Made by a program: the position numbers and the translations under genes. From a virus, in IMG/VR virus record IMGVR_UViG_3300041418_000129, positions 1 to 30,713 of that record: 30,713 bases of DNA. The stretch is one strand, 5' to 3'. Shown in pieces: positions 1-22,120 of the stretch (its first letter is position 1; every line of letters begins with the position of its first letter). The notes beneath the pieces are model-generated. The model had not been told where the DNA came from. It was given only the letters and a program-made list of their open reading frames with translations, and searched no databases.

Positions 1-2115
1 GTCCCGTTTGACGGCGAGCGGGAGTGGCGCGGAACTAAGTGGCGCCCGGTGGACAAGGCCGATTTCTCGATCCCTGGCACCTGGTGCATCTACCGCGTCC
101 CGCAGATGCTGCATAAGTTCGACCGGAACCGTGATGACCAGGTGATCTGGCTCATGATGCAGGATTGGGATTACGACTGGAAGGGTTTTGATCGCATGGA
201 TCGGGTGGTGACGTTATGCCACACGCACGAGAAATGGCTGCTGGAGCGGCATCCGGAGCTCAAACCGAAACTCCACGTCACCTCGAACGGTATCAAGGTG
301 GACTTGATCGAGGAGATCGAGAGAACCAACGAACTCCCACCACGCAATCCGCGGAAAATGATTTATGCGTCGTCGCCGGACCGCGGGCTGAAGCGGCTAC
401 TTGAGATCTTTGCTAAGGCCCAAGCTCAACAGGACCCGGCGCAACCGCTCGAACTTCACGTGTTTTACGGATTCGATGGTCTCGAACAGCTTGTCGCCCG
501 GAATCCGGATTCGGCGCCGCTGCTCAAAGACCGGGAAGAAATCCAGAAGCTGGCGGGGACGATCCCTGGCGTGCATCTACGTGGTCGTGTTTCACAGACC
601 GAACTCTATCGCGAATGGTTTTCAGCCGGCATCTGGTGCTATCCGACCGATTTCGCTGAGATGAGTTGCATCACCTGCCAGGAAGCGCAGGCGATGGGGG
701 CGATCCCGGTGACCTGCGAAGCATGGGCACAGGGTGAGAACACGTTATTCGGCATCACTATCACCGGAGACCCGGCGATTCCGGGGGTTCAGGACGAATT
801 TGTCAAGCAGCTTGTGTCAATCGCGAACGATATCCCGCGGCAAGAACGCATCCGGGCGGAAATGATGCCAGCCATCCGCCAGCGCTTCGACTGGAATCGC
901 CACGTGTCGCAGTGGGAAGACTGGACAGAAGAAGACCGTGTCGTGCATGAAACCCAGATCTGCCGTGGCTGCGGCGAAGACAAGCTCGAGACTGTACTCG
1001 ATTTGGGCGAACAGGCGATCGCCGGCTACTTCCCGGAGCCCGGCGAGAAAGTGCTTCTGGCGCCACTCGAGCTGGTGCGCTGCACCGCCTGCGATCTCGG
1101 CCAATTGCGGCATTCGGTGGATCGCCGGGCGCTATTCGCCGGCGCCTACGGCTACCGCTCTGGAATCAACGAAACCATGCGCGGGCACCTGAAGGGAATC
1201 GCCAAGGAATTCAAGGTGAAGAGCGGCGATCTGGTGGTGGACATCGGCTGCAACGATGGAACGTTTCTGGAGAACTTCCCGGTGCGCTCGCGCGTTGGTT
1301 ATGATCCATCGGAGATCTGCCCATCCAAATACCATCGGGACTTCTTCAGCCAGGAGCACTTCGAGAAACATCACCCCGGCAAGAAGGCGAAGGTGGTGAC
1401 TTCGCTGGCGATGTTTTACGACCTCGAGGATCCGCTCGAATTCGCCAAGCAGGTGCACGGCATCCTAGCCGATGACGGGATCTGGGTGATCGAGGTTCAG
1501 GATTTCGCCGAGACTGCCAAGAAATCGGCCTTCGACACAATCTGCCATGAGCATCTGACCTATTGGGACGCCACTAGGCTGGAAGAAGTCCTCGTGCGCT
1601 CTGGCTTCGTTTCCGTCAAAGTCGACTACAACTCTATTAATGGTGGCAGTATGCGGGTACACGCGATGAAGGTTGTCGTCCGTGAATCAGGACCAAAACC
1701 GTATCCACTGATGCCGATCATTTGGAAACAATTTGCCGCAGACGCACACTGGGCGCGCGCGTCACTTAAGAAGACGCTGGAAGAGTTGAACGGCAAACAG
1801 ATCTGGGGCTATGGCGCATCGACCAAGGGCAATGTGCTGCTGCAGTTCTGTGGTATTACGAACAAGGAGATCGTGGCGATCGCCGATCGTAACCCGGAAA
1901 AGTGGGGTAAGGTGACGCCAGGTAGCAACATCCCGATCGTTTCGGAAACGCTCATGCGCCAGGCGAAGCCGGATTACCTACTGGCCTTACCATGGGCCTT
2001 TATGGAGGAATTCCGCAAACGTGAGCCATGGGCACGCTGGATTGTGCCATTCCCCGAGGCGCACATCCTCGGGGCGGCTGAAAGTGATGCAGTGGAGGTG
2101 CCTGTATGCTCCTAA
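1..2115 (+). CDS. Glycosyltransferase (GT4-like) fused to three-part sugar C-methyltransferase; 5' partial
   Basis: The frame is open from base 1, so the true start lies left of the window; the first usable in-window start is GTG at 49, and residues here are counted from it. The N-terminal part looks like a GT-B glycosyltransferase: a segment beginning YASSPDRGLKRLL, then the family EX7E motif at E204/E212 followed by EAQAMGAIPV. The second part follows the order of NovU/TylC3-type C-methyltransferases: CxxC zinc pairs at 305/308 and 345/348, the SAM motif VVDIGCNDGTF near 395, a conserved CHEHLTYW segment, and a C-terminal Rossmann-like part with WGYGASTKGN and IADRNPEKWG. Such enzymes transfer or methylate nucleotide-activated sugars. 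It overlaps the next glycosyltransferase gene by 10 bp, so the two are probably co-translated. Inference: it decorates the virion, the phage DNA or the host envelope. The domain reading is strong; the substrate is unknown. Confidence 0.85.
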   Translation, partial: VPFDGEREWRGTKWRPVDKADFSIPGTWCIYRVPQMLHKFDRNRDDQVIWLMMQDWDYDWKGFDRMDRVVTLCHTHEKWLLERHPELKPKLHVTSNGIKVDLIEEIERTNELPPRNPRKMIYASSPDRGLKRLLEIFAKAQAQQDPAQPLELHVFYGFDGLEQLVARNPDSAPLLKDREEIQKLAGTIPGVHLRGRVSQTELYREWFSAGIWCYPTDFAEMSCITCQEAQAMGAIPVTCEAWAQGENTLFGITITGDPAIPGVQDEFVKQLVSIANDIPRQERIRAEMMPAIRQRFDWNRHVSQWEDWTEEDRVVHETQICRGCGEDKLETVLDLGEQAIAGYFPEPGEKVLLAPLELVRCTACDLGQLRHSVDRRALFAGAYGYRSGINETMRGHLKGIAKEFKVKSGDLVVDIGCNDGTFLENFPVRSRVGYDPSEICPSKYHRDFFSQEHFEKHHPGKKAKVVTSLAMFYDLEDPLEFAKQVHGILADDGIWVIEVQDFAETAKKSAFDTICHEHLTYWDATRLEEVLVRSGFVSVKVDYNSINGGSMRVHAMKVVVRESGPKPYPLMPIIWKQFAADAHWARASLKKTLEELNGKQIWGYGASTKGNVLLQFCGITNKEIVAIADRNPEKWGKVTPGSNIPIVSETLMRQAKPDYLLALPWAFMEEFRKREPWARWIVPFPEAHILGAAESDAVEVPVCS

Positions 2116-3415: not shown

Positions 3416-4543
3416 ATGAGCTTTCGGCCGAACCTCGACCGAAACCTTGTCCAGGGCTGGCTAAACGACCGCGTGCGCCAAGCGCTCGACTCGCGCACTT
3501 ACTGGGCTGACTTACTGTCTCACGGAGTCCTGTCGATCCCAAACTTCTACAAGAACGGAACCGTAAACGTGACGACTGGATCGACGATCGTCGCCGGCGG
3601 GATCCCGGACACTCAAGGCAACACGACCTCGTGGCCCGTGGATGACAAAGTGAACACCACGGTTGCCTCCGGTATCAATGAAATAGGCTATGTGGTAGTA
3701 ACTCCGGTTTCGATGTTGAATATTATGCCCGACACCTATCTCTACGTGGATGCTGCCGGGACTCCGGAGACCGTCGCCGTCGTGCGCACCACGGCGACAA
3801 CCTTCACGGCGCAATTCCAGTTCGTGCACCCAGCGGCCGCGACCACGCTCACGTCTTCCTCTCTCACTGGAATGCAGTTCCGTACCGACGAATCGAGCCC
3901 GGTCTTCACTGTGACGTCAGTCCAGAATGCAAATCAATTGACTATCGATCTGCCATGGGGCTACAACAACTTGACCAATTCGCCATACCAGATCGTGAAG
4001 TCATATTTCACCTTGGCGCCAGACCTCAAGGATTTGTTGTTCATGATCGACGCCTATCAGGGCATTCCGCTGCGCATCCACGTATCTGTTATGGAGATCA
4101 ACTGGCGGGATCCGCAGCGGTCGTCGACCGGGCCGCCGCTAGCTGTTGTTGACCTGGCACCTTCCGCCGGCGGCAGCATGCAATACGAGCTTTGGCCGTG
4201 GCAATTCGGAGCGTACCAGCTCGGGTTCATCTATCAGAAGCAGTGGCCGGATATGCTGAACGACACCGACCGGCCGCCGTGGTTCATTAACCCGAGTGTT
4301 TTCATGTACGGAGCACTCGCAGATGCGTTGAACTTTAAAGTCAACGAGAAAGACGTGTACCACAACCCGAAGTTGGCGATGCACTACGAGCAGAGATTTA
4401 TGAGGGGGCTCGAAGACGCTAAAAATGCCGACGAATCCAAATTCCAGCGCGCGTTCGACTTCAACTTCGAGCAGTTGTTCGGATCGGCCGGAGCCAACTT
4501 CTGGCAGTCGCACGATCCCGATGTGATTTCCTGGAATCTGTAG
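3416..4543 (+). CDS. Head-tail adaptor/connector-like structural protein
   Basis: The protein is 375 residues from ATG 3416. It has an N-terminal helical part with a WLNDRVRQALDSRTYWADLL pattern, then a beta-rich middle starting NGTVNVTTGST and containing FTVTSVQNANQLTID, then a segment with RSSTGPP and YELWPW. This combination recalls podovirus-type neck or adaptor proteins with an inserted 'G-T-V-S-V-T-x-G-S' beta domain. ATG 3416 has no visible ribosome site. The frame stays open back to the upstream TAA, and an ATC at 3371 sits just behind an AGGAG at ideal spacing, so the protein may begin there and be 390 residues. Its place beside other adaptor-like genes supports a neck role. The exact homologue is not identified. 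Confidence 0.7.
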   Translation: MSFRPNLDRNLVQGWLNDRVRQALDSRTYWADLLSHGVLSIPNFYKNGTVNVTTGSTIVAGGIPDTQGNTTSWPVDDKVNTTVASGINEIGYVVVTPVSMLNIMPDTYLYVDAAGTPETVAVVRTTATTFTAQFQFVHPAAATTLTSSSLTGMQFRTDESSPVFTVTSVQNANQLTIDLPWGYNNLTNSPYQIVKSYFTLAPDLKDLLFMIDAYQGIPLRIHVSVMEINWRDPQRSSTGPPLAVVDLAPSAGGSMQYELWPWQFGAYQLGFIYQKQWPDMLNDTDRPPWFINPSVFMYGALADALNFKVNEKDVYHNPKLAMHYEQRFMRGLEDAKNADESKFQRAFDFNFEQLFGSAGANFWQSHDPDVISWNL

Positions 4544-4565: not shown

Positions 4566-4591
4566 TGTGATGTCAGAAATGACGGATCACA
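4566..4591 (+). promoter_or_regulatory. Stem-loop with GAAA tetraloop in the leader of the small basic genes
   Basis: TGTGATGTCA, then GAAA, then TGAC-GG-ATCACA can fold into a 10-pair stem interrupted by a two-base GG bulge and capped by a GNRA-type loop. It lies in the 68-bp gap after the adaptor-like gene and 20 nt before the ATG of the first basic protein. It has no T-run, so it is unlikely to be an intrinsic terminator. It also contains GATGTCAGAAATG, a degenerate (10 of 13) match to the GTTGACAGAAATT element found elsewhere, so it could instead be a DNA site. Role unknown. Confidence 0.4.
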
Positions 4592-4611
4592 ATTGATGGA
4601 AGGAGTTTCGA

Positions 4612-4725
4612 ATGAAGAAGGGAAGACTCAAGAAAGCGAAAATGTACGGTGGCCGCAAGAAGCTGGACAAGGAAGCCCGCGAGACCACACACAGGACCGG
4701 CAAGCGCGGCAAGAAGCGGCGCTAA
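4612..4725 (+). CDS. 37-aa highly basic protein (tandem paralogue 1)
   Basis: The start is ATG 4612, with GGAAGGAG 6 nt upstream. The product is 37 residues, nearly half Lys or Arg, beginning MKKGRLKKAKMYGGRKK and ending GKRGKKRR. It is too short for default gene calling. It aligns with the next small ORF in the same frame (LKK-x-[KR]-MY, then KK, then ET-x-H, then a basic tail), so the two are tandem duplicates. Composition suggests nucleic-acid or acidic-surface binding, in the manner of small protamine-like or core proteins of virions. That is inference from charge and its place among structural genes. A longer overlapping frame (4593-4886) lacks a ribosome site and looks like a shadow. 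Confidence 0.7.
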   Translation: MKKGRLKKAKMYGGRKKLDKEARETTHRTGKRGKKRR

Positions 4726-4749
4726 CTCAAGTACGAAAAGGACAAGCAC

Positions 4750-4872
4750 ATGCCCAAATTGAAAAAGGATCGGATGTACCGGCACGGCAAGAAGCGCGGG
4801 ATTCACGCAATGCACCGCTCGGCGTTGGAAACTGCGCACAAGAGCAAAAGCGTCCGCAAGAAGAAGCGGTAG
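4750..4872 (+). CDS. 40-aa highly basic protein (tandem paralogue 2)
   Basis: The start is ATG 4750 with AAAAGGA about 7 nt upstream. The 40-residue product starts MPKLKKDRMYRHGKKRG and ends SVRKKKR. It shares the LKK-x-[KR]-MY-x-x-x-KK core and the ET-x-H motif with the neighbouring 37-residue protein, 24 bp upstream and in the same frame. The pair therefore arose by tandem duplication, possibly from one longer gene. A DNA-binding or virion-internal role is inferred only from charge. The stop is directly followed by the CACTCCTATATAGGAGTG palindrome. Confidence 0.7.
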   Translation: MPKLKKDRMYRHGKKRGIHAMHRSALETAHKSKSVRKKKR

Positions 4873-4873
4873 C

Positions 4874-4891
4874 CACTCCTATATAGGAGTG
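4874..4891. repeat. 18-bp perfect palindrome, copy 1 (CACTCCTATATAGGAGTG)
   Basis: This is a perfect inverted repeat starting 1 bp after the stop of the second basic protein and ending 11 bp before the ATG at 4903. In RNA it can fold so that its AGGAG half pairs with CTCCT, hiding a Shine-Dalgarno-like sequence near the next start. A second weaker site (GGGAG at 4893-4897) lies closer to the ATG. The same sequence recurs near 15949, 22097 and 27888. Confidence 0.85.
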
Positions 4892-4902: not shown

Positions 4903-5247
4903 ATGACCAAAAGTGTCCCTCCTGGACCGAACACGAACGACACCGGCCCACGGTCGGTGGAACACTACATCACGCAGGCTAACCGGCAGAACTTGGGATT
5001 CGAGCATCCGGTGGCCGCGTTCGCGCGCGCGAAGACGCGAGAGCTGAACCGGCACGATGCTGCCCGGATCGAGCAGAAGAACACCGGTATGCGCCAGAGC
5101 AAAGCGGAGATTATGGCTAACCAGAAGAAGTGGGAAGCCGAGTGCCGGGATCGCGAAGCGATGCGCCACTATGAGCACCACTTCACCGACATGCGCGGGG
5201 CGAACACGGTGAAGCGCGCCAATATCGTAGTGAAAAAGGTGGAGTAA
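4903..5247 (+). CDS. Hypothetical charged protein, 114 aa
   Basis: The start is ATG 4903 after GGGAGAG. The 114-residue product is hydrophilic, rich in Arg, Lys, Glu, Gln and His, with probable long helices from about residue 20 to 90 (a segment containing PVAAFARAKTRELNRHDAAR). There are no membrane segments, cysteine motifs or recognised domains. It lies between the tiny basic genes and adaptor-like genes, so it is probably a virion component or assembly factor, but I do not recognise it. The palindrome in its leader could control its translation. Confidence 0.65.
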   Translation: MTKSVPPGPNTNDTGPRSVEHYITQANRQNLGFEHPVAAFARAKTRELNRHDAARIEQKNTGMRQSKAEIMANQKKWEAECRDREAMRHYEHHFTDMRGANTVKRANIVVKKVE

Positions 5248-5250
5248 CCC

Positions 5251-5532
5251 GTGCCGACCACCGTTGATGAGCGCACCCCTGAAGGGATGGTAACGTACAT
5301 TATCACGTACGCCCTGCCAGACGGGCACATCATTGAGTGTTATCGTCAGGATTTTGCGCCCACAAATGACTTAGACGAGGCCCATTCGTGGTTATTGCGA
5401 AAAGCTAAGATGGAAAAGGAACTCTTTGATGGATGGAATGCCGAGCATGGATTTGTGCCAAATCCCGTTCCATACGTCGCGGGGAACTGGGGATGGAAGG
5501 CGTATGTGAAGGCGGAGGCGGTCAGTACGTGA
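5251..5532 (+). CDS. Hypothetical protein, 93 aa
   Basis: The start is GTG 5251, 3 bp after the preceding stop, with GGTGGAG at good spacing. The 93-residue product opens with a polar segment, then VTYIITYALPDGHIIECYRQDF, and ends rich in aromatics (GNWGWKAYVKAE). It is a small soluble alpha/beta-looking protein. I recognise no family. Its stop abuts the ATG of the next adaptor-like gene without a gap, so the two are translationally coupled. Confidence 0.6.
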   Translation: MPTTVDERTPEGMVTYIITYALPDGHIIECYRQDFAPTNDLDEAHSWLLRKAKMEKELFDGWNAEHGFVPNPVPYVAGNWGWKAYVKAEAVST

Positions 5533-6183
5533 ATGCCTCAATATCAGCTCCAAGACTTGGACGCCCGCGTTCTCGACCGGTTGGAGGGAAACTCGCTGTT
5601 CTACGTCCAGACGGAACGCTACAACGCCATCAACGAAGCACTGCGCGTTCTCAACGTCTTCACGGGGTTCACTCAGGCTGTGGTTTCGGTGCCGGGCGGT
5701 ACGCAAATCGGCCGGTACATTTACGATCAGCCGGCGGGTCTACTCTTTCCCATGGCGGTGGCCTTCAACAACCGGCAGTTGCGGCGCACGACGTTTCGCG
5801 CGCTCACCCAGCGCTACCGGCTCTGGTATCAGGACACGGCTACAAGCTTCGGGCCTGTGGCGCAATGGTGGCCGATCGGCACGCAGAAGTTCGGCATCCA
5901 CCCGGCTGACGTCATTGGCGGGCTCCCGCTCGCCATTGTCGGCGTCGTCGAGCCGACGCTGTTGGTCAATCCCACGGACGTCATTGACCTGCCGGATGAG
6001 TACACCCAGATCATCGATGACTACGCGGCACACGTGTTGCAGTTGAAGGAAGGTGGAAAGATCTTTGCCGACGCGAGTTTGCTCTACCAGAAGTTCCTGA
6101 GTGTCATGAAGGATTACGGCCGCTGGCGCTATTTGGTCCAGCCCCGGTACTGGATTGAGGCGCAGGCTGTCAAGAAGGGCTGA
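5533..6183 (+). CDS. Head-tail adaptor-like protein, 216 aa
   Basis: The protein starts with MPQYQLQDLDARVLDRL and a helix with ERYNAINEALRVLNVFTGF, followed by a beta segment and a C-terminal helix (YTQIIDDYAAHVLQLKEGGK). 'Helix, aromatic-rich beta core, helix' with an 'AINEALRxLNxxTG' motif resembles adaptor or connector proteins that sit below the portal in short-tailed phages. That match is from memory, not a search. The start at 5533 directly follows the upstream TGA, and GGAGG lies about 14 nt upstream within that gene. Its TGA overlaps the next ATG (TGATG). Confidence 0.6.
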   Translation: MPQYQLQDLDARVLDRLEGNSLFYVQTERYNAINEALRVLNVFTGFTQAVVSVPGGTQIGRYIYDQPAGLLFPMAVAFNNRQLRRTTFRALTQRYRLWYQDTATSFGPVAQWWPIGTQKFGIHPADVIGGLPLAIVGVVEPTLLVNPTDVIDLPDEYTQIIDDYAAHVLQLKEGGKIFADASLLYQKFLSVMKDYGRWRYLVQPRYWIEAQAVKKG

Positions 6184-7016
6184 TGACTTACGTGTCCGAC
6201 ATATACGATGCCGTGTGCGCTGTGCTTTTGGAACCCGTGTTGTCCAACTTACCGGAGACGACCGGCTTGCAGCTTGGTATGCTTACCGTCGACCAATTTC
6301 TCGGGTTCTTTTCTAGCGCGTTCAAGGACTTTACTCAGGAATCCGGGCTTGTCAAAAAGTTATTTTGCCAGGCCGTGACAAACGGCACAGGAGTATACAC
6401 GGAAGCCGACGCCCAGATGCAGGTTGAGGATGTATTCTACAACAACCGTTTCCTGAGTCCGACGGATTCTTACAATCTCGATGCGCTGTTCCTTAACTGG
6501 CGGACCGCTACTGGCGCACCGCAAACCTGGAATGAAGATCGCGTCACCGTGAAAGCGATCCAACTCGTGCCGGCGCCGATCATCAACGGGAATACAGTCG
6601 GCGTGTCGGCGAACTACTTCGGCACACTCAGTGCCGTGACGAATCCAGTCAACTTCACCTTCAGTACCACAGCACCGTTTTACGGGACGATCAGTAGCTA
6701 TTCCGGTGGGTCTTATCTGGATCCGATTTCGGCCGAGTTTGGGACAGTCAGCAACTTGGTTCCGTCTAGCGCGAACCTGATGATGTCATCGACGGCGCTC
6801 CCAGTGCAGAGTAAAACCTACGCGCTCACGGATCTGATTCAAGGGATACCGGACAGCTTCACGGTGTATCTGAAGTACGGCGTGCTCGAGCGTGTTTTCA
6901 AGATGGATGGAGAAATGAAGGATGAACTCCGAGCACGCTATTGCGCTGCTCGTTTCCAGGAAGGCGTTAACCTCGCGCGCGCCATCATGCAGGAAGTCGA
7001 AGAGGAAAAAATGTAA
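6183..7016 (+). CDS. Neck/adaptor-like structural protein, 277 aa
   Basis: An N-terminal helical part (FLGFFSSAFKDFTQESGLVKK) leads to a beta-rich middle (about residues 120-215) and a C-terminal motif IPDSFTVYLKYGVLERVFKMD followed by RARYCAARFQEGVNLARAIM. The ending 'P-x-S-F-x-x-Y-L-K-Y-G-V-L-x-R-V, then R-A-x-Y-C-x-x-R-F-x-E-G-V' is shared by structural proteins next to the tail nozzle gene in environmental podovirus-like contigs, as far as I recall. The gene overlaps its upstream neighbour by TGATG and its downstream neighbour by TAATG, indicating a tightly coupled cluster. Confidence 0.6.
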   Translation: MTYVSDIYDAVCAVLLEPVLSNLPETTGLQLGMLTVDQFLGFFSSAFKDFTQESGLVKKLFCQAVTNGTGVYTEADAQMQVEDVFYNNRFLSPTDSYNLDALFLNWRTATGAPQTWNEDRVTVKAIQLVPAPIINGNTVGVSANYFGTLSAVTNPVNFTFSTTAPFYGTISSYSGGSYLDPISAEFGTVSNLVPSSANLMMSSTALPVQSKTYALTDLIQGIPDSFTVYLKYGVLERVFKMDGEMKDELRARYCAARFQEGVNLARAIMQEVEEEKM

Positions 7017-12994: not shown

Positions 12995-13879
12995 ATGAGC
13001 AAAAAATCACACGCCGAGTACATGCGGAAATGGCGCAACGGGAACGAAGACTATGCCGAATACATGCGTCAATATCGCCAAGAGAATCGCGACAAGATTG
13101 CTAGCGATCATCAAGCTTGGCGCCAGCGTAACCAGAAACGTAACGCTGAACTGGCGCGCGAGTGGATTGTTAAAAATCCCGTTCTTGCTGCCTGTATCCG
13201 CAAGGCTCAGGCGGCCAACAGCCGTTTTCCTGGAAGACTCACGGCGCAGGATGTCTTTGAGATTATCGAGCGTTCTGGCTATAAGTGCCACTGGTGTGGT
13301 AAAGAAAATCTACGGGGGCCAGATTTGACGTTGGAGCATTTACAGCCGGTGAATGACAAGCGGTATCTCACGGTCGCCTGTCGCTCGTGCAATGGGGCGC
13401 ATAAGCACAAATATTCAGATCGCATCCCGATCACCCCGGAGGAGCGAAAGGCTAAAGATGCCGTTCGCCTACGTGGTTGGTATCTCAACAATCAAGATCT
13501 CCAGCGCCAGCGGCAGCGTGATTATGAGGCTCGCATCAGGCTTCGGGAACAAGGATTTCCCGTTGATGATGCGCCTCGGACTAAGGCGATCAAGTGGAAT
13601 CAGGCACACAGCGATATCAAACCGGCTGGCACATCGATGGCACAATTCCTCCACTCTCACGTAAAGTCTTCCATGGCACGCTATTCCGGCGACATCACGA
13701 TCAACGATGTGCGCGAGATCATCGACCGGGAAGAGCGGAAGTGCCGCTGGTGCGGCAAAGAGCGCCTTTTCGGCGAAGACCTGACGCTTGAGCACCTCGA
13801 CGAAACGAATGCGAAAGAAGCGATCGTTCTGGCGTGCCGGTCGTGTAACTCAAAGAAGTTACAGGAGGTAACAATTTGA
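12995..13879 (+). CDS. HNH endonuclease with two HNH/zinc modules
   Basis: The 294-residue protein has a basic N-terminal region with repeated EYMR and [RQ]xxNR elements. Two homologous modules follow. Module 1 has C98-x2-C101, LTLEH (H115) and C129-x2-C132. Module 2 has C250-x2-C253, LTLEH (H267) and C281-x2-C284. Both CxxC pairs hold zinc, and the EH lies in the beta-beta-alpha metal active site. HNH enzymes of this kind are typical free-standing phage homing endonucleases. The gene has its own sigma70-like promoter and sits between two structural genes, as expected for an intruder. Its TGA overlaps the next gene's TTG. The internal duplication is unusual and suggests a pseudo-dimer cutting both strands. 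Confidence 0.85.
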   Translation: MSKKSHAEYMRKWRNGNEDYAEYMRQYRQENRDKIASDHQAWRQRNQKRNAELAREWIVKNPVLAACIRKAQAANSRFPGRLTAQDVFEIIERSGYKCHWCGKENLRGPDLTLEHLQPVNDKRYLTVACRSCNGAHKHKYSDRIPITPEERKAKDAVRLRGWYLNNQDLQRQRQRDYEARIRLREQGFPVDDAPRTKAIKWNQAHSDIKPAGTSMAQFLHSHVKSSMARYSGDITINDVREIIDREERKCRWCGKERLFGEDLTLEHLDETNAKEAIVLACRSCNSKKLQEVTI

Positions 13880-14358: not shown

Positions 14359-16638
14359 ATGGCACTCCTCTATCGCACACTTCGCTCGAGCCTCAAGCCG
14401 ATCCTCGGCCTCAATGACATCAGTGCCCCTTCTGCGCAGAATCTGCAAGCTGGGTACCTGCTCAACGAAGCAGGCGGCGCGGTCCTCCATGATGTGCGTG
14501 GCGTCACGCCGGCGCAGCTCTCCGGAACTTACAACTGGCTACAAGGTCCAAGCGGGCCGGTAGTCAACTTCAACGGTGGGCTCGCCACTGGCCCATCTGC
14601 CGCACTTGACCCGTTCACAATCGGGTTCTGGCTGAAGTTGAGCACAGTGGCGCCGTCCAACCAGGACCCAATTTGTAAGTGCGATTCCTCTATCGGCCAT
14701 GGTTGGATTATCCAGGTTGAATCGAGCGGTGGTGGAAATATCCGGTTTGATGCCGCATTCACCGGAGCGAATAACTTTCAGCTTCAAATGGCGGTCCCAG
14801 ACACGACACACTGGCATTTCTACGTCTTTTACTGGGACAAAACCGGAGCCCACACCGGCGGCAACAGCAACGATGCGCACTCAGGCATCTATCTTGATGG
14901 CAAGCCTGCATTCATCAATACGGCGATCAGTGGCAGTGGCAGCCGCGTCTCCGATTCCGGCCAGCCCTTGACATTTGGTGCATTTACAGGCGGGATTTCC
15001 CCGCTGAGCAACGGGCAAATTGGATCCGTGTTCTTTTGGAATCGCATCGTTTCAGAGGCGGAAATTCAGGATCTTTACACTAAGACCTACCCCGCCATTA
15101 GGCCCTTGCATGTTTACCCAGCGCCACCGCCAATCCCCTCGCAGGACTATATCTTCTACGATTCCTTCGATTACCACCTCAAACAACAGCTAGCCCAGAA
15201 GTCATTCAATAGAAATGTCGAAACAGAAGGTTTCTGGGGGGAAGTGGTGCCAACCGGGGTTCCGACGTTCGGTTATGCTTTCGACGACCGCACCGATTAC
15301 CGACAGGCTCCACTGCGCGCCGCTCACTTCCCGCGCGACCAGGTTGCTTTCCTTGACTTCGCGCCAGTAACGCCCGTGGTGCCATCCCAGGATTACATCT
15401 TCTATGATTCGTTCGACTATCGCGCGGCCGCCAGCCGGATTCAGCAGGCACATTTCGATCGAAACGCGGTTTTGAGCAACTTTCAAGCAACGGTTCCACC
15501 GTCATTCGGCTGGAATTTCTATGACTCCTTCGATTACAAGGCACGGCAGAATCGCTTGGCGCACTTTCCGCGCGACTACGTGGCTGATGCCGGCATCATC
15601 TTTGCGGCAACCGGCGCGGCCGCGGCACCCAGCATCGGCTACCTGTTCTACGATTCCTTCGACTACAACAAAGCCAAGCGGTTGAATCTGCAGTTCCCGC
15701 GGAATTATGTGGACAACACAGCGGCGCTATTCACGCCGGTTGGGTTGAGCGTTCCCTCGCAGGACTACATCTTCTACGACTCGAACGACTACGTAGGGCA
15801 CGCGCGCCAGGCCGCGCAGCATGCGTTTCGACGGGACTACGTCGCCGAGCCACCGTGGAGTGCTCTTATCACACCGGCCTTTGTGGACCCGGCCGGCTGG
15901 TATCCCATCGTCACGCCGATCTCTGTCCCGGTACGCCAGCGACAAAGTTACTTCTATATAGGAGTGCCGAATGATCTCCGCGATGGCACCCTGTTGCCGG
16001 CCTGGAATTTCCTGCAAATCGGAGATTCGTCGCAAGAGCCATTGCGCCAGCGGGAATTGTTTCGACGCCTGCAACAGAATGTCGACCCAGTGAAGCCACC
16101 AAAGACCTTCCTGAGCGTCTTTTTCAGCGCCACCTGGGCACCATGGAACGCCAATCTGAGCAAGGCCGCAACCCGTAATTTCGTGGCGAGGATGCAAGCC
16201 TGGGCGGCGAGTCTCTCGATATTGTCACCGCACCCGCCGGCAATCGTCGGCTTCATGCTCAACGTGTGCTCGGAGTCGCGTCTGCTCGCAGCCATAAAGT
16301 ACACCATAGCAACAGTTTGCCAAGATCCAAGGACGGTCACCGTGCCTCTCAATACAACGCCAGTTTGCATGACATTCGTGAAAGACCCACAAGCCACCAC
16401 CGACTATTCGATCGACTGGACGATGCCGCTCACCGCCGCCTCGGACACGATTAAGACCTCTTCCTGGGCTACCGATCCAGGGGTCGCGGTGGCGAAATCA
16501 ACTTACGTCGGCTATGTGGTCACCGCGTTCATCTCGGGTGGCACGGTGGGCTCCAGCTACTCGGTCACAAACACGATCACCACTCCCGGCGGGCGCACGC
16601 TGGCACAGAACTTTATCGTCAAAGTGCAATTGCTATAG
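14359..16638 (+). CDS. Fibre protein: LamG-like domain, 40-42 aa repeats, C-terminal Ig-like domain
   Basis: ATG 14359 follows GGAGGAGGG. Residues about 30-250 form a LamG / concanavalin-A-like jelly roll: LQAGYLLNEAGG, PFTIGFWLKL, HWHFYVFYW, SGIYLDGKP, and the closing IGSVFFWNRIVSEAEIQDLY. Residues 260-505 hold six repeats of 'DYIFYDSFDY, then H-F-P-R-D-Y-V'. The last 80 residues (DYSIDWTMPL onward, with AFISGGTVGSSYSVTN) are an Ig-like 'D-T-I-x-x-S-x-W, S-G-G-x-x-G-x-x-Y' module that occurs twice more in the protein at 20803. LamG domains bind carbohydrate, so a receptor-contact or virion-surface role is likely. The mid region (about 510-660) is unrecognised and carries a palindrome copy in its coding DNA. 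Confidence 0.75.
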   Translation: MALLYRTLRSSLKPILGLNDISAPSAQNLQAGYLLNEAGGAVLHDVRGVTPAQLSGTYNWLQGPSGPVVNFNGGLATGPSAALDPFTIGFWLKLSTVAPSNQDPICKCDSSIGHGWIIQVESSGGGNIRFDAAFTGANNFQLQMAVPDTTHWHFYVFYWDKTGAHTGGNSNDAHSGIYLDGKPAFINTAISGSGSRVSDSGQPLTFGAFTGGISPLSNGQIGSVFFWNRIVSEAEIQDLYTKTYPAIRPLHVYPAPPPIPSQDYIFYDSFDYHLKQQLAQKSFNRNVETEGFWGEVVPTGVPTFGYAFDDRTDYRQAPLRAAHFPRDQVAFLDFAPVTPVVPSQDYIFYDSFDYRAAASRIQQAHFDRNAVLSNFQATVPPSFGWNFYDSFDYKARQNRLAHFPRDYVADAGIIFAATGAAAAPSIGYLFYDSFDYNKAKRLNLQFPRNYVDNTAALFTPVGLSVPSQDYIFYDSNDYVGHARQAAQHAFRRDYVAEPPWSALITPAFVDPAGWYPIVTPISVPVRQRQSYFYIGVPNDLRDGTLLPAWNFLQIGDSSQEPLRQRELFRRLQQNVDPVKPPKTFLSVFFSATWAPWNANLSKAATRNFVARMQAWAASLSILSPHPPAIVGFMLNVCSESRLLAAIKYTIATVCQDPRTVTVPLNTTPVCMTFVKDPQATTDYSIDWTMPLTAASDTIKTSSWATDPGVAVAKSTYVGYVVTAFISGGTVGSSYSVTNTITTPGGRTLAQNFIVKVQLL
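15133..15870 (+). repeat. Six tandem coding repeats of 120-126 bp
   Basis: The core codes for SQDYIFYDSFDY or a variant. Cores start near 15149, 15275 (degenerate, FGYAFDDRTDY), 15394, 15514, 15640 and 15766. Spacing is 119-126 bp. Each core is followed about 12 residues later by [HA]F-x-R-[DN]-x-V. Nucleotide divergence between copies is substantial, so the array is old and held by selection on protein. Confidence 0.8.
15949..15966. repeat. 18-bp palindrome, copy 2 (two mismatches)
   Basis: TACTTCTATATAGGAGTG lies inside the LamG/repeat fibre gene and codes for FYIGV. It differs from the perfect copies by two C-to-T changes in the left arm. In the sense RNA both become G-U wobble pairs, so the hairpin could still form. 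Confidence 0.7.
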
Positions 16639-22096: not shown

Positions 22097-22120
22097 CACT
22101 CCTATATAGGAGTGTTTTTT
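22097..22120 (+). terminator. Palindrome copy 3 plus T-run: terminator of the rightward unit
   Basis: A perfect CACTCCTATATAGGAGTG (22097-22114) is followed at once by six T, between convergent genes ending at 22092 (+) and 22119 (-). Hairpin plus T-run fits an intrinsic terminator for the plus strand. On the minus strand the hairpin is followed by CCGG, not T, so it should not stop leftward transcription the same way. The T-run overlaps the last bases of the leftward gene's stop codon. Confidence 0.7.

What the first reader, a model, noticed from the sequence alone, without database searches (positions are those of the whole stretch)
4612..4872. Two tiny, strongly basic tandem paralogues
Products of 37 and 40 residues, nearly half Lys or Arg in the first and similarly rich in the second, share LKK-x-[KR]-MY, KK and ET-x-H and follow an adaptor-like structural gene. 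They are missed by length cut-offs, and a shadow frame (4593-4886) may be annotated instead. Candidates for virion DNA-condensing or capsid-binding peptides.
Basis: partly seen in the sequence, partly recalled or inferred. Interest (0 to 1): 0.6.

Follow-up and report, generated by a model that had tools for sequence, protein, structure and literature searches.

The report
Tiny basic twin phage proteins
A soil-type phage known only from metagenomes carries two real but easily missed genes, next to its head-to-tail adaptor genes, for tiny sister proteins that are 40-49% lysine and arginine; several relatives carry unrelated but equally basic small genes in the same place, which suggests, without proof, a nucleic-acid-binding job in building or filling the phage particle.

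Summary
ORFs 4612-4725 (37 aa, 18 K/R, calculated charge about +15) and 4750-4872 (40 aa, 16 K/R, about +14) each have ATG and a Shine-Dalgarno sequence. They are the only 2 of 259 ATG ORFs of 30-60 aa with K+R >= 40% in about 83 kb of this virus. They resemble each other beyond composition (p about 0.001), with 8 synonymous codon differences in this frame against 2 on the opposite strand. The 4593-4886 frame lacks the codon signature of the phage's genes. The preceding gene is a head-tail adaptor by predicted fold (GP4, Pa223, VP1, SU10). No homologue of either peptide was found beyond contigs of the same virus. What recurs is the position: between this adaptor and the next adaptor gene, relatives carry unrelated strongly basic small genes; other relatives have none. 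Small ORFs there are basic in 5 of 16 cases against 7 of 377 far from the capsid gene. Most likely they are late virion-assembly or internal-head peptides that bind nucleic acid, analogous to T4 internal proteins. Bulk DNA condensation is unlikely: 300 copies of each would neutralise about 5% of the genome charge. Virion presence is untested.

The parts
4612..4725 (+). b1: 37-aa strongly basic protein MKKGRLKKAKMYGGRKKLDKEARETTHRTGKRGKKRR, SD AAGGAG
4750..4872 (+). b2: 40-aa strongly basic paralogue MPKLKKDRMYRHGKKRGIHAMHRSALETAHKSKSVRKKKR, SD AAAAGGA; same frame as b1
3416..4543 (+). S: head-to-tail adaptor-like protein (375 aa) with an inserted beta domain; upstream border of the slot
   Evidence: AF2 pLDDT 88; Foldseek GP4 8jov_G 1.4e-5, SU10 7z4f_H 8.5e-4; VIA Z 10.0 Pa223, 9.0 SU10
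4903..5247 (+). 114-aa protein of unknown function; homologue in relative L034
   Evidence: 27% over 91 aa, E 4e-9; 5.7e-8
5251..5532 (+). 93-aa ORF (GTG start), no family match
5533..6183 (+). SU10-type adaptor protein; downstream border of the slot
   Evidence: Pfam PF24175, 30.0 bits against cut-off 27
6183..7016 (+). second SU10-adaptor-like protein
   Evidence: Pfam PF24175, 27.3 bits against cut-off 27
4593..4886 (+). overlapping shadow ORF (97 aa, TTG start, no SD), judged not a gene
4573..4839 (-). antisense ORF (88 aa, GTG start, no SD) in codon register with b1/b2, judged not a gene
4874..4891 (.). perfect 18-bp palindrome CACTCCTATATAGGAGTG, a dispersed repeat of this virus, just after the b2 stop codon

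Best explanation
b1 and b2 are genuine late genes in the head-tail operon, made by duplication of a unit of about 40 codons. They encode basic, probably largely disordered or helical peptides that bind polyanions (DNA or acidic virion surfaces) during head filling or head-tail joining, and probably end up inside or at the neck of the particle. They would work like the small basic internal proteins of T4 heads, not like a protamine that neutralises the whole genome. Shown here: gene reality on sequence grounds, paralogy, position, and recurrence of unrelated basic genes in the same slot. Inferred: late expression, nucleic-acid binding, virion location.
For: Shine-Dalgarno sequences and uniqueness of composition. 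Paralogy with 8 synonymous codon differences in frame against 2 on the antisense strand. Position between head-tail adaptor genes. Non-homologous basic genes in the same slot of relatives: L040, L072 and G018 (L200) RRGTxGxFG family, L034 72 aa, L042 46 aa; L092 and L047 have the family downstream of S, with no adaptor found in the stretch held. Enrichment 5/16 against 7/377, Fisher p = 4e-5; without the window virus 3/12, p = 0.002. Precedent: T4 IPI-III are basic, about 300 copies per head, bind DNA at low salt, are poorly conserved, and relatives have other basic proteins that may substitute (PMC9026906).
Against: No homologue of b1 or b2 outside this virus, so frame conservation cannot be tested across species. 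Most relatives with the slot have no strongly basic gene there; one RRGTxGxFG copy lies elsewhere in its genome (L177). Position in a late operon alone does not prove a virion role. No expression, proteomic or binding data. The enrichment rests on few genes, and the 5/16 count includes a hand correction (a shadow ORF removed in L034).
Confidence: 0.45

Rival explanations
1. The peptides are made late but act in the cell, for example as RNA-binding or host-takeover peptides (ribosome, nucleoid or RNA polymerase), and their place in the virion operon only sets timing.
For: High charge suits RNA binding; the slot also carries unrelated small proteins of ordinary charge in many relatives; basic small genes also occur far from the capsid gene.
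Against: Repeated use of this one slot for unrelated basic genes fits a link to assembly better.
Confidence: 0.25
2. Injected peptides: packaged in the head, ejected with the DNA and acting early in the host, for example against restriction or nucleases, like T4 IPI.
For: Rapid turnover and non-homologous replacement resemble T4 internal proteins, which are poorly conserved, possibly because of the arms race with host restriction (PMC9026906).
Against: No cleavage signal of the T4 type (no [LI]xE in either peptide, read from the sequence; the T4 motif is from general knowledge); no data on packaging.
Confidence: 0.15
3. Protamine-like condensation of the whole packaged genome.
For: Composition; many eukaryotic dsDNA viruses use small arginine-rich proteins (PMC3281028; PMC6163548).
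Against: 300 copies of each supply 8,520 charges for at least 163,000 phosphates, about 5%; 1000 of each about 17%. A study of chlorella viruses states that there is no evidence that basic proteins neutralise much phage DNA (PMC3281028).
Confidence: 0.07
4. Not genes: a Lys/Arg-rich stretch with chance starts, the true gene being the 4593-4886 frame or the antisense ORF 4573-4839.
For: No homologues in other species; the antisense ORF is in codon register and so also shows self-similarity (44 against 22.1).
Against: SD before both sense ORFs, none before the rivals; third-position GC 0.80-0.81 in the sense frame against 0.38 (shadow) and 0.48 (antisense); 8 against 2 synonymous differences.
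Confidence: 0.08

Closest known systems
T4 internal head proteins IPI, IPII, IPIII
   Same: Small, basic, from a phage head; poorly conserved, with other basic proteins in relatives that may substitute (PMC9026906)
   Different: 8-20 kDa against 4.4-4.8 kDa; carry capsid-targeting sequences; b1/b2 lack a T4-type cleavage motif and virion presence is unknown
RRGTxGxFG small basic family of related phages (alignment A4, no Pfam or PHROG match)
   Same: Strongly basic small gene between the S adaptor and the next adaptor gene
   Different: 68-79 aa, no sequence similarity to b1/b2; one copy lies outside the slot
DUF6496 (PF20106)
   Same: Small Lys-rich phage protein, found in relative L086 upstream of the capsid gene
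   Different: Not matched by b1/b2
Protamine-like core proteins of eukaryotic dsDNA viruses (adenovirus, baculovirus)
   Same: Very small, very basic, encoded by a dsDNA virus (PMC3281028)
   Different: Eukaryotic hosts and condensation of the whole genome; the charge budget here does not fit
SU10, GP4 and Pa223 head-tail adaptors
   Same: Identifies the neighbouring gene S by fold
   Different: Neighbour, not the peptides; S has an extra beta domain of about 100 residues or more

Membership tests
T4-type internal head protein | Small strongly basic protein | tested here: met
   charge +14.6 and +13.8
T4-type internal head protein | N-terminal capsid-targeting sequence with [LI]xE cleavage site | tested here: not met
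   no [LI]xE in either sequence (read directly)
T4-type internal head protein | Present in the mature head at hundreds of copies | not testable with these tools
   needs virions
RRGTxGxFG small basic family (A4) | RRGTxGxFG...GG...KRA...N core | tested here: not met
   family HMM search finds no b1/b2; the b1/b2 HMM finds no family member
DUF6496 | Pfam PF20106 match | tested here: not met
   no Pfam hit at E <= 1
Any PHROG family | significant PHROG match | tested here: not met
   b1 none; b2 only E 0.13 to an HNH family
Head-tail adaptor (neighbour gene S) | Adaptor fold of SU10/GP4 type | tested here: met
   Foldseek E 1.4e-5 to 8.5e-4; VIA Z 8.6-10, 171-183 residues aligned
Head-tail adaptor (neighbour gene S) | Pfam PF24175 match | tested here: not met
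   S has no PF24175 hit; the genes at 5533 and 6183 do

The most novel reading that the evidence does not exclude
This group of phages keeps a swappable slot in its head-tail operon for unrelated, very small, very basic peptides that are packaged with the genome, a bacteriophage counterpart of viral core peptides that turns over faster than the structural genes around it.
Probability: 0.2. Interest if true: 0.7.

Novelty: new member of a known kind. Interest (0 to 1): 0.4.

Why it matters
Genes this short fall below usual annotation cut-offs, yet here two are supported by duplication and codon evidence, and the same operon position holds unrelated basic genes in relatives. If they are packaged, they would show how phages other than T4 use small cationic proteins in the head, a point on which the literature read here says evidence is scant (PMC3281028), and would give a positional rule for finding more of them.

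Tried and rejected
Back-translated motif scans of 2.9 million viral contigs (LKKx[KR]MYxxxKK, and an SD-anchored LKKx[KR]MY) found only this virus; other hits were interrupted, not basic, 13-aa fragments or parts of other proteins. tblastn of b1, b2 and the 114-aa neighbour against 50,697 phage records: nothing. Genome-contig scan with the S alignment: no relative, so no host clue. The search for related loci refuses queries this short. Pfam and PHROGs: nothing for b1/b2. Enrichment within 12 kb of the capsid gene as a whole is modest (6/89 against 7/377); the slot-level count is the stronger one. Structure prediction of the RRGTxGxFG family gave a low-confidence all-helical model (pLDDT 64), not used further. 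Isolated phages with distantly similar capsid or terminase (Mx8, BUCT555, ppBjS10J-1, Tunturi_1) show no clear equivalent among the small genes checked. The other contigs of the same virus at the locus are identical or differ by one base in 9.5 kb, so population variation gives no test.

Full report
What is there. The window is a 30.7-kb record of a virus. Two more IMG/VR contigs of 75 and 43 kb carry the locus; over the 9.5 kb compared one is identical and the other differs by one base. Combining the window with the 75-kb contig, the genome is at least 81 kb (from the coordinates). Upstream of the window lie a terminase-like gene, a portal-like gene and a major head protein. In the window, after glycosyltransferase-like genes, come S (3416-4543), b1 (4612-4725), b2 (4750-4872), a 114-aa and a 93-aa ORF, and two genes matching the SU10 adaptor family of Pfam.

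The two small ORFs are genes on sequence grounds. Both have ATG and a Shine-Dalgarno sequence. In about 83 kb of this virus they are the only 2 of 259 ATG ORFs of 30-60 aa with K+R of 40% or more, and they are adjacent. They resemble each other beyond composition (p 0.0012-0.0016). Of 27 differing aligned codons, 8 are synonymous in this frame and 2 on the antisense strand; of 12 single-base differences, 7 against 2. The alignment was made on the sense proteins, which leans somewhat towards that frame. Self-similarity alone does not separate the sense frame from the antisense frame in codon register (p 0.0016 and 0.0013), so the synonymous counts, the Shine-Dalgarno sequences and third-position GC (0.80-0.81 sense, 0.48 antisense, 0.38 shadow) carry that argument. 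The two ORFs are in the same frame, separated by TAA and 8 codons.

The neighbour. S was predicted from 25 homologues at pLDDT 88. Its best structural matches are head-tail adaptors: GP4 8jov_G E 1.4e-5, Pa223 9nwi_A 1.4e-4, SU10 7z4f_H 8.5e-4, and Z 10.0 Pa223, 9.5 VP1, 9.4 GP4, 9.0 SU10 over 171-183 residues. These entries are portal-tail or tail complexes; that the matched chains are the adaptor rings follows from their length and from the SU10 paper's description of that protein (PMC9509320), and is partly my inference. S itself has no Pfam adaptor hit.

Relatives. The S and major-head-protein alignments brought in 17 and 80 loci. Where both S and the next adaptor are present, the interval between them varies from 5 bp to several kb and its genes are replaced between viruses. 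b1 and b2 have no homologue there. Instead, L040, L072 and G018 (L200) have a homologous 68-72-aa basic gene between S and the adaptor, in G018 even though that block lies about 17 kb from the capsid gene; L092 and L047 have the same family downstream of S, with no adaptor in the stretch held. L034, the closest relative with the slot (79% capsid identity), has a 72-aa ORF with 39% K+R that ends at the adaptor start; L042 has a 46-aa ORF with 35% K+R. About a dozen other lineages have no strongly basic gene in the slot. One copy of the RRGTxGxFG family lies elsewhere, in G004 (L177).

Enrichment. With one ORF rule, 6 of 17 small SD-preceded ORFs in 19 slots have K+R of 0.32 or more, against 7 of 377 more than 12 kb from the capsid gene. 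One of the six is a 26-aa shadow ORF inside the L034 homologue of the 114-aa gene; without it the counts are 5/16 (p = 4e-5), and without the window virus 3/12 (p = 0.002). The rule missed the L072 and L034 basic genes, so it is not tuned in favour of the claim; but the slot was chosen after seeing b1/b2 and the numbers are small.

Function. Position and composition point to a late, polyanion-binding role in assembly; this is inference. The charge budget argues against bulk condensation: 300 copies of each give about 5% of at least 163,000 phosphates. The nearest characterised analogues are T4 IPI-III: basic, about 300 copies per head, DNA-binding at low salt, poorly conserved, with other basic proteins in relatives that may substitute (PMC9026906). 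b1/b2 lack the T4-type [LI]xE cleavage motif, so they are not filed as members. A study of chlorella viruses states that there is no evidence that basic proteins contribute much to neutralising phage genomes (PMC3281028), which is why packaging of these peptides would be worth testing.

Verdict. Observation confirmed. Interpretation partly supported: virion-related small basic peptides are plausible, condensation of the whole genome is not, and direct evidence is missing.

Noticed in passing
window 4874-4891, 22097-22114, 27892-27909, 15949-15966 (2 mismatches); L027 912, 7845, 15741; L028 2180, 7175, 12850, 14664; L029 579, 7022, 8131, 12633: Perfect 18-bp palindrome CACTCCTATATAGGAGTG dispersed through the genome (4 copies in the window at up to 3 mismatches against 0.01 expected). 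Some copies are followed by a T-run, others place AGGAG just before a start codon. Exact copies in the viral collection fall on only a handful of contigs, including this virus: operator, terminator or translation-control hairpin.
   Followed up: partly
window 22696-23973(-) and 23977-25263(-): Two adjacent paralogous glycine-rich fibre-like genes of about 425 aa on the minus strand.
   Followed up: no
window 12995-13879(+); L027 4196-5368(-): The window ORF has two repeats resembling an HNH CxWC...H core by eye; the L027 gene next to the capsid gene matches HNH endonuclease PHROGs.
   Followed up: no
L029 6606-7666 and 7715-9498: A block of about 1.1 kb appears twice in tandem: the same minus ORF and the same start of a plus ORF recur.
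   Followed up: no
L086 373-546, L098 261-473, L110 4085-4300, L117 1737-1913, L102 5835-5957, L105 5750-6057: Further small Lys/Arg-rich ORFs upstream of the capsid gene in relatives; the first matches DUF6496, the others no Pfam or PHROG family where tested.
   Followed up: partly
window 49-2115(+): A 688-aa ORF that reads by eye as a glycosyltransferase-like domain fused to a methyltransferase-like domain, upstream of the adaptor genes.
   Followed up: no
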